A stretch of DNA of 43,956 nucleotides from Lysobacterales bacterium (GTDB lineage Bacteria; Pseudomonadota; Gammaproteobacteria; Xanthomonadales; SZUA-36), in assembly GCA_013042915.1 (NCBI GenBank), contig JABDPF010000096.1:1-43956 (forward strand), written 5' to 3'. The translations under genes and the position numbers were made by a program. A model generated the notes under the pieces. The model made no database searches, was not told the DNA's origin, and saw only the letters and a list, made by a program, of their open reading frames with translations. Shown piece by piece: positions 2,833-34,066 of the stretch (position 1 is its first letter; each line of letters opens with the position of its first letter).

Positions 2833-2860
2833 GCCGCAGGCGAGAGTAGGGAAGCGAGAC
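2833..2860 (-). repeat. 28-bp dispersed element, copy 1
   Basis: The complementary strand of this stretch reads GTCTCGCTTCCCT followed by an ACTCTCGCC and CTGCGGC; it matches copies at 11791-11818 and 14132-14159 at about 26 of 28 positions, and 34021-34041 in part. Here it also overlaps a perfect hairpin (CTCTCGCC at 2828-2835, loop GCA, GGCGAGAG at 2839-2846). It ends 25 bases before the start codon of the Spy-like gene, so it should be in that mRNA leader. Confidence 0.65.
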
Positions 2861-2885
2861 TTCTTTATCAGTGCATGAGGTGACC

Positions 2886-7344: not shown

Positions 7345-8616
7345 ATGGAGTTTGAACACAGCGATAAAGTGAAGCGTCTGCAGCGTCGGTTGCTGGATTT
7401 CATGGAGGACCACGTCGAATCGCGCATGGCGCAGTGGCAGCGCGAGGTCCATGCCGGTACCTACCCGGTGTCGTTCATGGAAGACCTCAAGGCCCTGGCC
7501 AAAACCGAAGGCCTGTGGAACCTGTTTCTGCCGAACCTGGGCGACGACGAACCGGGCACGGGCCTGAGCAACCTCGAGTACGCACCGCTGGCCGAGATCA
7601 TGGGCCGGGTGCCGTGGGCGTCGGAGGTGTTCAACTGCAACGCCCCCGATACCGGCAACATGGAACTGCTGCACATTTTCGCCACGCCGGAACAGCGCGA
7701 GCGCTGGCTGCTGCCGCTGCTGCACGGCGAGATCCGGTCGGCGTTCGCGATGACCGAACCGGACGTGGCCTCCGCGGATGCCACCAACATCCAGACGCGC
7801 ATCGAGCGGCAGGGCGACGAGTACCTGGTCAACGGCCGCAAGTGGTTCATCACCAACGCCTCGCACCCCGATTGCCGATTGTTCATCCTGATGGGCAAGA
7901 CCGACCCGGACGGCGAGGACCGCCACCGGCAGCAAAGCATGATCCTGGTGCCGATGGACACCCCCGGCGTCGAGGTGCTGCGCAACATCCCCTGCTTGAA
8001 CCACGTATCGCCGGAGGGCCACAGCGAGGTCTTGTTCCGCAACGTGCGCTTGCCGGCCACCAGTCTGCTGGGCGCGGAGGGTGACGGCTTCATGATGGCG
8101 CAGGCGCGCCTGGGCCCGGGCCGCGTCCACCACTGCATGCGTGCCATCGGCATGGCCGAGCTGTGCCTGCAGCTGATGGTGGCCCGTTCTCGTGAGCGCA
8201 AGGTGTTCGGCCGCCACCTGTACCAGCACGGCTCGATCGCCGAGTGGATCGCCCGCTCGCGCATCGAGATCGAGCAGGCCCGCCTGCTGGTGCTGAAAAC
8301 CGCGGCCCTGATCGACGGCGGCGGCGCCCGCGCGGCGCGCAAGGAAATCTCGATGATCAAGGTGATCGCCGCCGGCCTGCTCACGAACATCGCCGACCGC
8401 GCCATCCAGGTCTTCGGCGCGATGGGGCTGAGCCCCGATACGCCGCTGGCCGACCTGTATACCGCGGGCCGGGCCTTGCGTTTCGTGGACGGACCGGACG
8501 AGGTTCACCTGCAGACCATCGCCCGGCTGGAAGCCCGCGATCAGCAGGACCAGCTGATGGCCGTGATGAAATACCTCCAGCCCTGGAATGGGGAGCCGCA
8601 AGGAGATAAGCGATGA
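7345..8616 (+). CDS. acyl-CoA dehydrogenase, ACAD10/11 type
   Basis: The ATG at 7345 follows a GGGAGG site and gives 423 residues, the normal size of the family. FAMTEPDVASADATN (about 133-147) is the FAD- and substrate-binding motif, followed by WFITNA, a GEGFxxxQxRLGPGR-like segment (GDGFMMAQARLGPGR), and GPDEVH near the C-terminus. The closest familiar proteins are the dehydrogenase halves of ACAD10/ACAD11, flavoenzymes that oxidise acyl-CoA and, with their kinase half, process 4-hydroxyacyl-CoA. The next gene encodes precisely that kinase-like half and overlaps this stop codon by four bases (ATGA), so the two are translationally coupled. Substrate chain length is not readable. An upstream in-frame ATG at 7246 is rejected because it would add a non-homologous leader. 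Confidence 0.92.
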   Translation: MEFEHSDKVKRLQRRLLDFMEDHVESRMAQWQREVHAGTYPVSFMEDLKALAKTEGLWNLFLPNLGDDEPGTGLSNLEYAPLAEIMGRVPWASEVFNCNAPDTGNMELLHIFATPEQRERWLLPLLHGEIRSAFAMTEPDVASADATNIQTRIERQGDEYLVNGRKWFITNASHPDCRLFILMGKTDPDGEDRHRQQSMILVPMDTPGVEVLRNIPCLNHVSPEGHSEVLFRNVRLPATSLLGAEGDGFMMAQARLGPGRVHHCMRAIGMAELCLQLMVARSRERKVFGRHLYQHGSIAEWIARSRIEIEQARLLVLKTAALIDGGGARAARKEISMIKVIAAGLLTNIADRAIQVFGAMGLSPDTPLADLYTAGRALRFVDGPDEVHLQTIARLEARDQQDQLMAVMKYLQPWNGEPQGDKR

Positions 8617-9626
8617 CGTCTGAAGTCACGTTACTCGATCTCGACCGCCTGGCAGGCCACCTCGGCCACCGCTTCGGACAGCTGGAGTCGGCGGAAAAAT
8701 TCAGCGGTGGGCAGTCCAACCCCACCTTCCGCCTCGTCACCAGCGAGGGCGATTTCGTATTGCGCCGGCAGCCACCCGGGACATTGCTCAAGTCCGCTCA
8801 TGCGGTCGACCGCGAGTACCGGGTTATGCGCGCGCTGGCCGATACGCCGGTGCCCGTGCCCGAGGTATACCACCTCTGCGAGGACCCGGAGGTCATCGGA
8901 TCCAGCTTTTTCGTCATGGAGTACTGCGACGGGCGCATCTTCTGGGAAGCCGCGCTGTCAGGCAAGGGGGCCAAGGAGCGAGGCGCCATTTACGAGCAGA
9001 CCAACAGGGTTCTGGCGCAGCTGCACATGGTGGACTTCGAGGCCGTGGGACTGGGCGACTATGGCCCGCGCGGCAACTACTACGAGCGGCAGTTCAGCCG
9101 CTGGAAGGGGCAGTACGAGGCGTCTGAGACGCGCACCATCGCCAGCATGAACGACCTGATCGCCTGGCTTGGCGCCAACCTGCCGCCCGACGACGGCCGG
9201 GTTTCGCTGGTACACGGTGACTACCGTCTCGACAACTTGGTGTTCCACCCGGACCGCCCGGAGATCATTGCGGTGCTGGACTGGGAGCTGTCCACGCTCG
9301 GCCATCCGCTGGCCGACCTGGCCTACCAATGCATGCTGCTCCGAATGCCGGCCGACGCCAAGCCGGTGGGCGGCCTGGCCGGCCTCGACCTTGCCGCGCT
9401 GGGCATCCCGGACGAGGAGGAATACGTGGCGAGCTACGCGGAGCGCACCGGCATCGAACCGGCGGGCAACTGGTCCTTCTACCTGGCGTTCAGCATCTTC
9501 CGGCTTGCGGCGATCATCCAGGGCGTGGTCAAGCGCGCGGCCGACGGCAACGCCTCCAACCGGCATGCGGCGCGGCTCGACGGTATGGTGGAATCGTTGT
9601 CGCGGATGGCCTTGAGCATCGTGTAA
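8613..9626 (+). CDS. APH-like acyl-CoA kinase, ACAD10/11 N-terminal type
   Basis: This 337-residue protein belongs to the aminoglycoside-phosphotransferase fold family. It has a glycine-rich loop with SGGQSNPTF (31-39), a VLRRQPPG strand (49-56), the catalytic loop HGDYRLDN (201-208) and the metal-binding DWE (223-225) followed by STLGHPLADLAY. In ACAD10/11 this domain phosphorylates the hydroxyl of a 4-hydroxyacyl-CoA so that the dehydrogenase partner can finish the elimination. The gene starts within the dehydrogenase stop codon (ATGA overlap), which supports joint function as a split version of the fused animal enzyme. Its last nine codons and the following bases are duplicated 2.27 kb downstream beside groEL. 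Confidence 0.9.
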   Translation: MTSEVTLLDLDRLAGHLGHRFGQLESAEKFSGGQSNPTFRLVTSEGDFVLRRQPPGTLLKSAHAVDREYRVMRALADTPVPVPEVYHLCEDPEVIGSSFFVMEYCDGRIFWEAALSGKGAKERGAIYEQTNRVLAQLHMVDFEAVGLGDYGPRGNYYERQFSRWKGQYEASETRTIASMNDLIAWLGANLPPDDGRVSLVHGDYRLDNLVFHPDRPEIIAVLDWELSTLGHPLADLAYQCMLLRMPADAKPVGGLAGLDLAALGIPDEEEYVASYAERTGIEPAGNWSFYLAFSIFRLAAIIQGVVKRAADGNASNRHAARLDGMVESLSRMALSIV

Positions 9627-9653
9627 AAAGGAACCCGCATGCGGAGCGGTCTT
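9598..9653 (+). repeat. kinase 3' end/terminator direct repeat, copy 1
   Basis: From TGTCGCGGATGGCCTT through the kinase stop codon and a GC-rich palindrome, this stretch matches 11864-11920 with about seven differences and one gap. In this copy the hairpin (ACCCGC...GCGG/AGCGGT) is degraded compared with copy 2. Confidence 0.8.
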
Positions 9654-9931
9654 TCGTATCCGCGGTCAGAAAGAATAAACCACGCAGTATTTGGGGTCAG
9701 GGTGAAAAATTTTGAATGGTTTGCTCTGACCCCAAAAGTTCTCAATTTTTTTCGCGCTTTAACGCCTATCGTGCGCTCAGCAAAGAGCGTTTATGCTGCA
9801 GCTTCAGGCCTGCCGTCTTAATACGGGTAAAATGACTTCTTCCAATCCCTGAGCGTCATTCAGCGATACGTGTTCGAATGATTGCTTTCAGGTAATTCGG
9901 AACCAACCGATCAAGGAGACCCCGGCCCCTG
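9627..9931. other. repeat-bearing gap after the kinase gene
   Basis: This 305-base gap holds the rest of the duplicated terminator (to 9653), a 47-base REP/MITE-like palindrome (9690-9736), and then an AT-rich stretch with a run of T (9745-9751) leading to the membrane-protein gene. I see no supported gene in it. Confidence 0.6.
9690..9736. repeat. 47-base REP/MITE-like palindrome
   Basis: The 11-base arms TTTGGGGTCAG (9690-9700) and CTGACCCCAAA (9726-9736) are perfect inverted repeats around a 25-base AT-rich centre. GGGGTCAG...CTGACCCC palindromes are common in gammaproteobacterial genomes that carry REP-associated transposases; none is present in this window. A run of seven T begins eight bases further on, so weak terminator activity is possible. 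Confidence 0.7.
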
Positions 9932-11287
9932 GTGGAAGATAAACGCAACGAAAAGCAGATTGAGTACAGGTCCGAGGCGATGGACCGGCTGCGCGACCGT
10001 ACCGATGAACTCGAGCTGATCATCTCGAGCCTCACGATCTTCGCGCTATTCTCATTACCCGGCTGGCTGTTCGACAAGATCGCCGACAGCTACACGCACC
10101 TGTCGTTGAGTCTGGCCATCGCCGGCAACCTGGGCATCACGCTGTTGACCGGCACCTGTTACGGCCTGGCGGCGTGTTTCGTGATACACCTGATGGCGCG
10201 CGCATACTGGGTAGGTCTGATCGGTCTGCGTACCGTATTTCCTGACGGAATCAACTGGAGCAAGACACCGGGGATCGGGCCGCTGGGTCGGCGGTACTAC
10301 CAGGATACGCTGCCCGATCTCGATACCGTCATCCGAAAAACGGATCGGATTGCATCGTCACTGTTCGCGGTGATCAGCATGTTGACGCTGGGCATTCTCT
10401 GGTTCGGCTCGATCCTGATCGGCATCCTGGTCGTGTCTGGCGCGATCGGCGCCCGTTTTGGCCTCACCAATGCCGGGACGGGCATCGGCTCGGCGGTGCT
10501 CCTGGTTCTGTTCATCGGCGTGCCGATACTCGTGTATGTGCTGGACGTGCAAATTGCGTCGCGCGTGCCCCGTGTCCGCGACAACCGCATTTTTGCTGGT
10601 GTTGTGCAATTCATGCGTCGTCTCGCGGGCCTGGCCTACCCCCAGCGCCTGGTCTTGCCGGTGCAGTTGACCCTGCAGAGCAATACGCGCCCGATCGTCT
10701 TCTTCGTCGCACTCACCCTCAGCGTTTTCGTCATTGTCGCCGTGGGCAGCACACGTGCTGCCGCATGGCGTAATTTCACGCTTTCCGGTGAGTTTTCCTA
10801 TCTCGACACAGATCTGGCCCGGGAAGGACTGAGCAGCACGCACTACGAGGATATGCCCAGCTCGTTCGACCGCTTGCGCGGCTGGCCGAGGGTCGACAGC
10901 TTCAGCCAGTCCGGTAGTTTCGTTCGCTTGTTCCTGCCCTACCAGCCGCTTCGGGATAATCTTGTTCTCGACCACCTCTGTGGCAGCGCCGAGGAAGCAC
11001 CGGACAGGGTAGATTGCTTGCGACAACTATGGACGGTTGGCATCGACGGAAACAAGGTCTCGATGGCGGATTTTGAGCCAGCCGAACGCGCCGATCTGGG
11101 AATGCGAGGGTTGATTGGTCTGGTGCCACTGTCCGGTCTCGAACCAGGTTTGCGCCGGATCGAGGTCGTGTGGAATCCCAGTGCGTCCGACGCAGCGGCC
11201 GCACTGGACGATCGTTACTCGGAGCTCAACCGCCGTTACGTAATTCCCATCGCTTTTTCACCAGCTTTCGAATTGTCCCTGGACTGA
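9932..11287 (+). CDS. unknown inner-membrane protein
   Basis: The product has 451 residues and no family I recognise. It starts at a GTG with AAGGAG 13 bases upstream; a CTG three bases earlier is an alternative. After a charged N-terminus (MEDKRNEKQIEYRSEAMDRL) there are about six hydrophobic segments, near residues 28-48, 55-85, 145-165, 170-190, 195-215 and 250-270. The C-terminal 180 residues are soluble, probably outside the membrane, with cysteines in HLCGS and VDCL, a segment GLEPGLRRIEVVW, and a terminal strand VIPIAFSPAF. The gene is followed by a DUF423 gene after 12 bases, and both lie in a segment bounded by direct repeats. The soluble domain may bind a ligand, but nothing indicates a reaction. 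Confidence 0.8.
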   Translation: MEDKRNEKQIEYRSEAMDRLRDRTDELELIISSLTIFALFSLPGWLFDKIADSYTHLSLSLAIAGNLGITLLTGTCYGLAACFVIHLMARAYWVGLIGLRTVFPDGINWSKTPGIGPLGRRYYQDTLPDLDTVIRKTDRIASSLFAVISMLTLGILWFGSILIGILVVSGAIGARFGLTNAGTGIGSAVLLVLFIGVPILVYVLDVQIASRVPRVRDNRIFAGVVQFMRRLAGLAYPQRLVLPVQLTLQSNTRPIVFFVALTLSVFVIVAVGSTRAAAWRNFTLSGEFSYLDTDLAREGLSSTHYEDMPSSFDRLRGWPRVDSFSQSGSFVRLFLPYQPLRDNLVLDHLCGSAEEAPDRVDCLRQLWTVGIDGNKVSMADFEPAERADLGMRGLIGLVPLSGLEPGLRRIEVVWNPSASDAAAALDDRYSELNRRYVIPIAFSPAFELSLD

Positions 11288-11299
11288 CTAGGAAGCCGA

Positions 11300-11692
11300 A
11301 TGCATGCGCCACCGGCCAATTCATTCACTGCACTTGGTGCGCTGGGCTGCCTTCTCGGTGTGGTCACCGGCGCGTTCGGCGCGCATGCCCTGGAGCAGAT
11401 GTTCTCGCCAGACCGACTGGATACGTGGGAAAAAGCGGTGGATTATCTATTTTTTCACTCGTTGGGCTTGTTTCTAGTGGGGATGCTCGACCGCTTCGAG
11501 TCCAGACCTTGCCATCGATGGACTGGCTTGCTGATGCTCGTTGGAATCGTGCTGTTCAGCGGCAGCCTGTTCGCGCTGGTGCTCAGCGGCGTGACAGCGC
11601 TGGGAATGGTCACGCCCTTCGGCGGCGTCAGCCTTATTCTCGCCTGGCTGTTACTGGGCATCTGTTATCTAAAGCCGGGGAAATCTGCGTAA
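11300..11692 (+). CDS. DUF423 small membrane protein (YgdD-like)
   Basis: A 130-residue protein with four predicted membrane helices. The N-terminal GALGCLLGVVTGAFGAHALE and the HSLGLFLVG and PFGGVSLILAWLLL segments are characteristic of DUF423 proteins, whose role is unknown. An AGGAAG site lies about five bases before the ATG. It follows the unknown membrane-protein gene by 12 bases, and the pair is probably an operon. Family members are usually found singly near housekeeping genes; here the gene is within the direct-repeat-flanked segment. Confidence 0.88.
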   Translation: MHAPPANSFTALGALGCLLGVVTGAFGAHALEQMFSPDRLDTWEKAVDYLFFHSLGLFLVGMLDRFESRPCHRWTGLLMLVGIVLFSGSLFALVLSGVTALGMVTPFGGVSLILAWLLLGICYLKPGKSA

Positions 11693-11790
11693 GCTTCCCG
11701 GTCAGCGTGGCCTGGACGCTTCGCTCTCTATTGGTTTTCTTCTTCCCTCGGCCGGGCACTGCAGAACAGCATCGCGAAGCCGAATAAGAC

Positions 11791-11818
11791 GTCTCGCTTC
11801 CCTGCTCCCGCCTGCGGC
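11791..11818 (+). repeat. 28-bp dispersed element, copy 2
   Basis: It reads GTCTCGCTTCCCTGCTCCCG followed by CCTGCGGC, and matches the element upstream of rep (14132-14159) with two differences in the same orientation, so the two copies flank groES-groEL as direct repeats. It also matches 2833-2860 on the opposite strand with two differences. Confidence 0.65.
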
Positions 11819-11863
11819 TCCTAAACCGCGTTTGTAGTGATACCGCTAAGTACGAGTCACCCC

Positions 11864-11920
11864 TGTCGCGGATGGCCTTGGGCATCGTGTAAAAAGAAAC
11901 CCCGCACGCGGCGGGGTCTC
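11864..11920 (+). repeat. kinase 3' end/terminator direct repeat, copy 2
   Basis: This stretch matches the end of the kinase gene at 9598-9653. Translated on the plus strand it still encodes LSRMALGIV and a stop, compared with LSRMALSIV and a stop in the real gene. No upstream coding sequence of a kinase remains. It contains an intact GC-rich hairpin that is probably the groEL terminator. Confidence 0.8.
11890..11917 (-). terminator. rho-independent terminator of groEL
   Basis: On the minus strand, a 7-bp stem (ACCCCGC/GCGGGGT, 11899-11917) with a five-base loop is followed by TTCTTTTT. It lies 47 bases beyond the groEL stop codon. It is T-poor on the plus side (TCTCTT), so it would stop plus-strand transcripts less well. 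Confidence 0.8.
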
Positions 11921-11963: not shown

Positions 11964-13616
<1,653 letters not shown>

Positions 13617-13650: not shown

Positions 13651-13941
13651 TCAGCCTTCGATGATCGCCATGATGTCGTCTTCACGCATCACCAGCAGCT
13701 CGTCACCGTCGACCTTGACCTCGGTGCCGGCGTACTTGCCGAACAGCACGGTGTCGCCTTTCTTGACGTCCAGGCCACGCTGGTCGCCGTTCTCCAGGAC
13801 CTTGCCGTTACCCACGGCCAGGACCTCGCCGCGAATCGGCTTCTCCGCCGCGTTATCGGGAATCACGATCCCACCCGCGGACAGTTTTTCTTCCTCGACG
13901 CGCTTTACGATCACGCGGTCATGCAAAGGACGAAGTTTCAT
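13651..13941 (-). CDS. groES: co-chaperonin GroES
   Basis: A 96-residue protein of normal length that starts [14 protein letters not shown] and contains the mobile-loop region [18 protein letters not shown] and the C-terminal [16 protein letters not shown]. It forms the heptameric lid of the GroEL chamber. AGGAG precedes the ATG by seven bases. It is the first gene of the groES-groEL operon, with a sigma-32 promoter about 110 bases upstream. Confidence 0.99.
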
Positions 13942-14082: not shown

Positions 14083-14131
14083 TGCCGACGGTGATTAAGT
14101 GCGCGGAATGGGGCCCGAAGTCCGAAAAAGA

Positions 14132-14159
14132 GTCTCGCTTCCCTGCTTGCGCCTGCGGC
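14132..14159 (+). repeat. 28-bp dispersed element, copy 3
   Basis: It reads GTCTCGCTTCCCTGCTTGCG then CCTGCGGC, and differs from the copy at 11791-11818 at two positions. It ends 47 bases before the rep start codon. Confidence 0.65.
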
Positions 14160-33988: not shown

Positions 33989-34041
33989 TCGCGAGAGCAG
34001 CCGCCTTTCGCGACGCAGTCGCGGGAGCAGGGAAACGAGAC
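33989..34041. repeat. dispersed element, copy 4, with internal direct repeat
   Basis: The minus strand of 34021-34041 reads GTCTCGTTTCCCTGCTCCCG then C, matching copies at 11791 and 14132 over 21 bases with one difference. Just upstream, TCGCGAGAGCAG (33989-34000) and TCGCGGGAGCAG (34019-34030) form an imperfect direct repeat with a period of 30. The element ends 25 bases before the cutA start codon. Confidence 0.6.
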
Positions 34042-34066
34042 TCCTTGTTTCCGGTAGAATCCTGCC

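What the first reader, a model, noticed from the sequence alone, without database searches (positions are those of the whole stretch)
9598..11920. Segment with two membrane-protein genes flanked by copies of the kinase 3' end
The last nine codons of the kinase gene, its stop and the following hairpin (about 56 bases) recur 2266 bases downstream as a direct repeat beside groEL. The right copy still encodes LSRMALGIV and stop but has no gene in front of it. The simplest reading is that kinase and groEL once converged on a shared terminator and a 2.27-kb segment with an unknown membrane protein and DUF423 was inserted at the 3' end of the kinase gene, in the manner of site-specific elements that duplicate a gene's end. 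No integrase is visible, so recombination between repeats is also possible.
Basis: partly seen in the sequence, partly recalled or inferred. Interest (0 to 1): 0.62.

Follow-up and report, generated by a model that had tools for sequence, protein, structure and literature searches.

The report
Recombination scar between kinase and groEL
Two membrane-protein genes sit between two imperfect copies of the last 56 bases of a neighbouring kinase gene, most likely a scar left when foreign DNA was patched in beside groEL by ordinary recombination rather than by a new mobile element.

Summary
9598-9653 recurs at 11864-11919 (56 columns, 89%), far above chance, and no comparably strong gene-spaced repeat exists in the 1.48 Mb of this genome that I scanned. 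The right copy ends in an intact groEL terminator; the left copy's hairpin has decayed. Both copies therefore descend from one kinase/groEL convergent junction, and the 2.2 kb with an unnamed membrane protein and DUF423 now lies between them. No relative held shows a kinase-groEL junction, so the ancestral state is inferred, not seen. A site-specific element is not supported: there is no integrase in the segment, one XerCD-type recombinase in the genome, no phage or plasmid relative, and no sister element. A relative (G034) has an independent case: an unrelated gene between two groEL tails. A congener (G019) shows the corresponding groEL-Doc junction without it. The two tails differ by 7 synonymous changes out of 8, so both came from functional groEL lineages. 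Across 15 genomes the groEL 3' side shares almost no neighbours (2/105 pairs), the groES side nearly always (94/105). The best explanation is additive capture of related DNA by homologous recombination, a known kind of event; which side moved is unresolved.

The parts
8613..9626 (+). intact APH-family phosphotransferase ('kinase') that supplies the duplicated 3' end
   Evidence: PF01636 E 3e-55; preceded by an acyl-CoA dehydrogenase, whose homologue is also near the kinase in 69 of 80 GTDB kinase loci
9598..9653 (+). left copy of the repeat: last 9 kinase codons, stop, decayed terminator hairpin
9690..9736 (.). GGGGTCAG...CTGACCCC palindrome (small interspersed family) just inside the segment
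   Evidence: -25.8 kcal/mol, z -5.5; 22 half-sites in the genome against 1 for the reversed control
9932..11287 (+). 451-aa helical membrane protein of unnamed family
   Evidence: no Pfam or NCBIfam hit; homologues 51-54% in another family of the order, none in 36 same-family genomes; helical model with a C-terminal beta domain, pLDDT 74.7, no significant solved fold match
11300..11692 (+). DUF423 membrane protein, probably co-transcribed (12-base gap)
   Evidence: PF04241 E 1.5e-27
11780..11818 (+). copy of a ~35-nt interspersed repeat (about 27 matches in the genome)
11864..11919 (+). right copy of the repeat: 9 orphan kinase codons and stop, plus the intact terminator
11894..11919 (-). groEL intrinsic terminator (predicted) inside the right copy
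   Evidence: 12-bp stem followed by a T run, -20.4 kcal/mol, z -5.2
11964..13613 (-). groEL (groES at 13651-13941 on the same strand)
   Evidence: PF00118 E 1.2e-75

Best explanation
The repeat is a scar of additive homologous recombination. A kinase gene and groEL once converged on one shared terminator, in this lineage or in a close donor. DNA from a related bacterium carrying part of that junction then entered the chromosome. At one end it recombined through the conserved homologous sequence. At the other end it joined illegitimately, or it had circularised and entered by a single crossover. The old 3' end was therefore added to instead of replaced, leaving two copies with two genes between them. 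Afterwards the groEL-side copy kept its terminator under selection and the kinase-side copy lost it. Shown: the repeat, its edges, the intact and decayed terminators, the absence of an integrase and of a Y1 transposase, the lack of shared neighbours on the groEL 3' side in the family, and an independent case with a matching empty junction in a relative. Inferred: the kinase-groEL ancestor, which side was imported, the RecA-type mechanism, and uptake by transformation (only ComEC was checked).
For: Both copies contain kinase end plus groEL terminator. In relative G034 the groEL tail (about 238 bp) is repeated 1332 bp downstream around one unrelated gene. The right tail leads into the same Fic/Doc block (90% over 627 bp) that directly follows groEL in congener G019. 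The two G034 tails differ in 8 codons, 7 synonymous, which is unlikely for a decaying fragment (P about 4e-4 if 25% of changes were synonymous). Their post-stop bases match different congeners: TAAGGGA as in G025/G029 and TAAGCCA as in G019/G010. Genome pairs share an ORF within 5 kb upstream of groES in 94/105 cases but downstream of groEL in 2/105. ComEC is present. Published precedents: integrations at lacZ that duplicated 109-950 bp through single crossover (PMC3240628); Vibrio T6SS arrays in which an insertion shifts back an old effector 3' end, explained by homology-facilitated illegitimate recombination (PMC5361080); hotspots without mobility genes whose flanking core genes recombine often (PMC5635113).
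Against: No donor and no empty kinase-groEL site were found, because no second species of the genus is held. The window's repeat has only nine codons and one coding difference (Ser/Gly), too few for the synonymous test that works in G034. The G034 case supports the mechanism by analogy only; its cargo and duplication length differ. Variable gene order beside groEL may be general synteny decay, not a bounded capture site.
Confidence: 0.5

Rival explanations
1. Gene-order change by tandem duplication and loss: a block holding membrane protein-DUF423-ACAD-kinase was duplicated in tandem beside groEL, and deletions removed the left membrane-protein pair and all but the last nine codons of the right kinase.
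For: It explains a gene-end remnant and a direct repeat without foreign DNA. In genus g16 the membrane protein lies beside the Rep helicase, and that helicase is 2.8 kb away in the window, so the gene may be an old neighbour.
Against: No vestige of ACAD, kinase, membrane protein or DUF423 was found in the gaps or left of ACAD. In the parallel G034 case the tails differ at synonymous sites, as separate functional lineages would. The membrane protein is absent from 36 family relatives.
Confidence: 0.3
2. Site-specific integrative element (or its integrase-less remnant) that used the kinase 3' end as attachment site and rebuilt it with its own copy.
For: Direct repeats made of a gene's 3' end are the usual outcome of such integration; the left, gene-restoring copy is the one whose hairpin has diverged.
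Against: No recombinase in 2.2 kb; only one XerC/D-like Phage_integrase match in the genome; no match in phages, plasmids or viral contigs; the G034 case has other ends, other cargo and a duplication four times as long; no other strong repeat pair in 1.48 Mb.
Confidence: 0.08
3. Rearrangement driven by the GGGGTCAG palindromes (REP-like units and a Y1/RAYT transposase).
For: A palindrome begins 36 bases inside the left repeat's end; the same family lies inside both G034 tails and beside groEL in G019, G010 and G026.
Against: No Y1_Tnp gene in the 96%-complete genome; the palindrome is outside the window's repeat and absent from the right copy; few full palindromes (5 in 1.5 Mb); such units commonly lie at gene 3' ends anyway.
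Confidence: 0.05
4. Chance similarity or assembly error.
For: The window is from a draft of 105 contigs.
Against: Score 40 against at most 15 in shuffles; the copies differ from each other, so a collapsed or doubled read stretch does not explain them; no N in the region, unlike G010's doubled tail.
Confidence: 0.02

Closest known systems
Insertion with long target duplication (described for restriction-modification genes; Nobusato et al. 2000, as cited in PMC3874152)
   Same: Gene insertion flanked by long direct repeats of variable length (order of 100 bp), with no transposase or integrase required.
   Different: Here the cargo is two membrane-protein genes, not a restriction-modification system, and no empty site for this exact locus was seen.
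Homology-facilitated illegitimate recombination and single crossover of circularised DNA (PMC3240628)
   Same: One-sided homology and a duplication of the homologous end; the experiment gave 109-950 bp duplications.
   Different: The duplication here is shorter (56 bp remaining) and diverged; the mechanism is inferred from the anatomy only.
T6SS and Rhs arrays with orphan 3' ends (PMC5361080)
   Same: Intact gene, newly added downstream gene, then a leftover 3' fragment of the older gene copy with its old neighbour.
   Different: No toxin-immunity selection is evident; the gene concerned is a metabolic-type kinase beside groEL.
Recombination-driven hotspots without mobile elements (PMC5635113)
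   Same: High gene turnover beside a conserved gene and no mobility genes.
   Different: Here only one side of groESL is variable, and the far border of the variable region was not mapped.

Membership tests
Site-specific integrative element at a gene 3' end | tyrosine or serine recombinase encoded by the element | tested here: not met
   Only the membrane protein and DUF423 have supported homologues in the segment; single XerC/D-like match elsewhere. Serine recombinases were not searched genome-wide.
Site-specific integrative element at a gene 3' end | direct repeats (att) with the gene restored by one copy | tested here: met
   this feature is shared with the other models
Site-specific integrative element at a gene 3' end | same ends reused by other copies, or an empty site in relatives | tested here: not met
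   No other copy of the repeat in the genome, no other strong pair in 1.48 Mb; no kinase-groEL junction in relatives.
Insertion with long target duplication | long direct duplication of target sequence at both borders | tested here: met
   56 bp at 89%
Insertion with long target duplication | empty, unduplicated site in a close relative | tested here: inconclusive
   Not available for the window (no congener held); present for the parallel G034/G019 case.
Homologous-recombination capture (single crossover or HFIR) | the two copies derive from separate functional lineages | tested here: inconclusive
   Too few codons in the window; met in G034 (7 of 8 codon differences synonymous).
Homologous-recombination capture (single crossover or HFIR) | recombination and DNA-uptake functions in the host | tested here: inconclusive
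   ComEC found; RecA, DprA and pili not searched.
REP/RAYT element | Y1 transposase | tested here: not met
   no PF01797 match in the genome

The most novel reading that the evidence does not exclude
The 3' flank of groEL (shared terminator, with or without the GGGGTCAG palindrome) acts in this lineage as a preferred, integrase-free capture site at which incoming genes are added with duplication of the adjoining gene end, by a dedicated mechanism rather than by random recombination.
Probability: 0.08. Interest if true: 0.65.

Novelty: new member of a known kind. Interest (0 to 1): 0.3.

Why it matters
It is a readable record of how genes enter a chromosome without mobile-element machinery. The orphan gene end marks the border of an old import. 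Together with the G034/G019 pair it suggests that the groEL 3' flank in this family collects such scars, which could be scanned for in other lineages.

Tried and rejected
Empty kinase-groEL site in relatives: 61 genomes and 80 GTDB kinase loci, none. Phage, plasmid and viral origin of the membrane protein: no hits. Membrane protein and DUF423 as a conserved pair: never together within 1.5 kb in the loci searched. Vestiges of neighbours in the gaps, for duplication and loss: none above noise. Which kinase tail is ancestral: the Ser/Gly position is highly variable in relatives, so it does not tell. Second groEL tail in G010: a near-identical repeat right after an N, so taken as a scaffolding artefact. 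Function of the membrane protein: no family and no significant fold match. One PHROGs query failed on wrong coordinates and was not repeated. One search was a stray look-up that was not used.

Full report
Observation. The pair 9598-9653 / 11864-11919 is real: spacing 2266, 89% over 56 columns, score 40 against at most 15 in shuffled windows. In 1.48 Mb of the same genome only one other, weaker repeat of this spacing class was found. The left copy is the end of an APH-family kinase (PF01636) that follows an acyl-CoA dehydrogenase; a homologue of that dehydrogenase is also near the kinase in 69 of 80 kinase loci from GTDB. The right copy keeps nine codons and the stop with no gene in front.

Terminators. 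On the minus strand the right copy is a strong intrinsic terminator for groEL (-20.4 kcal/mol, z -5.2); the same part of the left copy no longer folds well (-6.8, z -0.3). Both copies thus descend from one junction at which the kinase and groEL converged on a terminator. The copy beside groEL has been kept and the other has decayed. The event is therefore probably not recent, or the copies came from already diverged strains.

The segment. It holds a 451-aa helical membrane protein without Pfam or NCBIfam match and a DUF423 protein. The membrane protein is absent from all 36 same-family genomes searched. Its best homologues (51-54%) are in another family of the same order, and 31 of 398 genomes of the order (the window's own included) have a match at E <= 1e-30. 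DUF423 is common in the family but not seen beside the membrane protein. GC content is somewhat lower than in most of the neighbouring coding sequence (about 0.55-0.61 against about 0.61-0.70). No integrase is present, the genome has one XerC/D-like Phage_integrase match and no Y1 transposase, and phage, plasmid and viral collections have no relative. The order is Lysobacterales, judged from one relative's public record title (L159).

Relatives. No kinase locus has groEL beside it, in 61 genomes or in 80 GTDB loci, so the ancestral junction could not be seen. In 15 family genomes the groES side shares an ORF within 5 kb in 94 of 105 pairs, the groEL side in 2 of 105 (the count includes any ORF of 80 aa or more, and a few contigs are short on one side). 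The groEL 3' side is therefore a place of gene turnover or synteny loss.

The parallel case. In G034 the end of groEL, a palindrome and the terminator recur 1332 bases downstream around one gene without known family. After the second tail comes a Fic/Doc gene block that in congener G019 directly follows groEL, 90% identical over 627 bp. This is a matching empty junction. The two tails differ in eight codons, seven of them synonymous, and carry post-stop bases typical of different congeners. A decaying fragment would be unlikely to show this pattern (P about 4e-4 at 25% synonymous). The tails come from two functional groEL lineages, so DNA from a related strain was probably added. A doubled tail in G010 lies next to an N and is treated as an artefact.

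Mechanism. The anatomy (intact gene, added gene, orphan 3' end, old neighbour) matches events ascribed to homology-facilitated illegitimate recombination in Vibrio T6SS arrays (PMC5361080). It also matches single-crossover insertions of circularised DNA that duplicated 109-950 bp in E. coli (PMC3240628). Insertion with long target duplication without transposase is known for restriction-modification genes (PMC3874152), and hotspots without mobility genes are linked to recombination at flanking core genes (PMC5635113). I prefer this reading at 0.5, duplication and loss at 0.3, a site-specific element at 0.08. Which side moved is open: in genus g16 the membrane protein lies beside the Rep helicase, which in the window sits just beyond groESL, so the membrane-protein pair may be the older resident and the groEL or kinase side the newcomer.

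Limits. No second species of the genus is held, the window repeat is too short for a synonymous test, and the G034 case is an analogy.

Noticed in passing
L197 8604-8841 and 9936-10166 (genome G034): groEL tail with palindrome and terminator duplicated around one unnamed gene; congener G019 has the uninterrupted groEL-Doc junction.
   Followed up: yes
window 11780-11818, 14122-14159, 2833-2865 (-), 34021-34049 (-): Interspersed ~35-nt repeat, roughly AAGGAGTCTCGCTTCCCTGCTCCCGCCTGCGGC, about 27 matches in the genome; identity unknown.
   Followed up: partly
window 9693-9733: Palindrome family GGGGTCAGAGTA..TACTCTGACCCC, 22 half-sites in the genome and also between groEL stop and terminator in several relatives, without a Y1 transposase in this genome.
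   Followed up: partly
L034, L035, L036: Homologues of the membrane protein are convergent neighbours of the Rep helicase; in the window the helicase lies 2.8 kb away beyond groESL.
   Followed up: partly
L196 (genome G010), just downstream of groEL: A near-identical second groEL tail begins beside a single N, probably a scaffolding artefact.
   Followed up: yes
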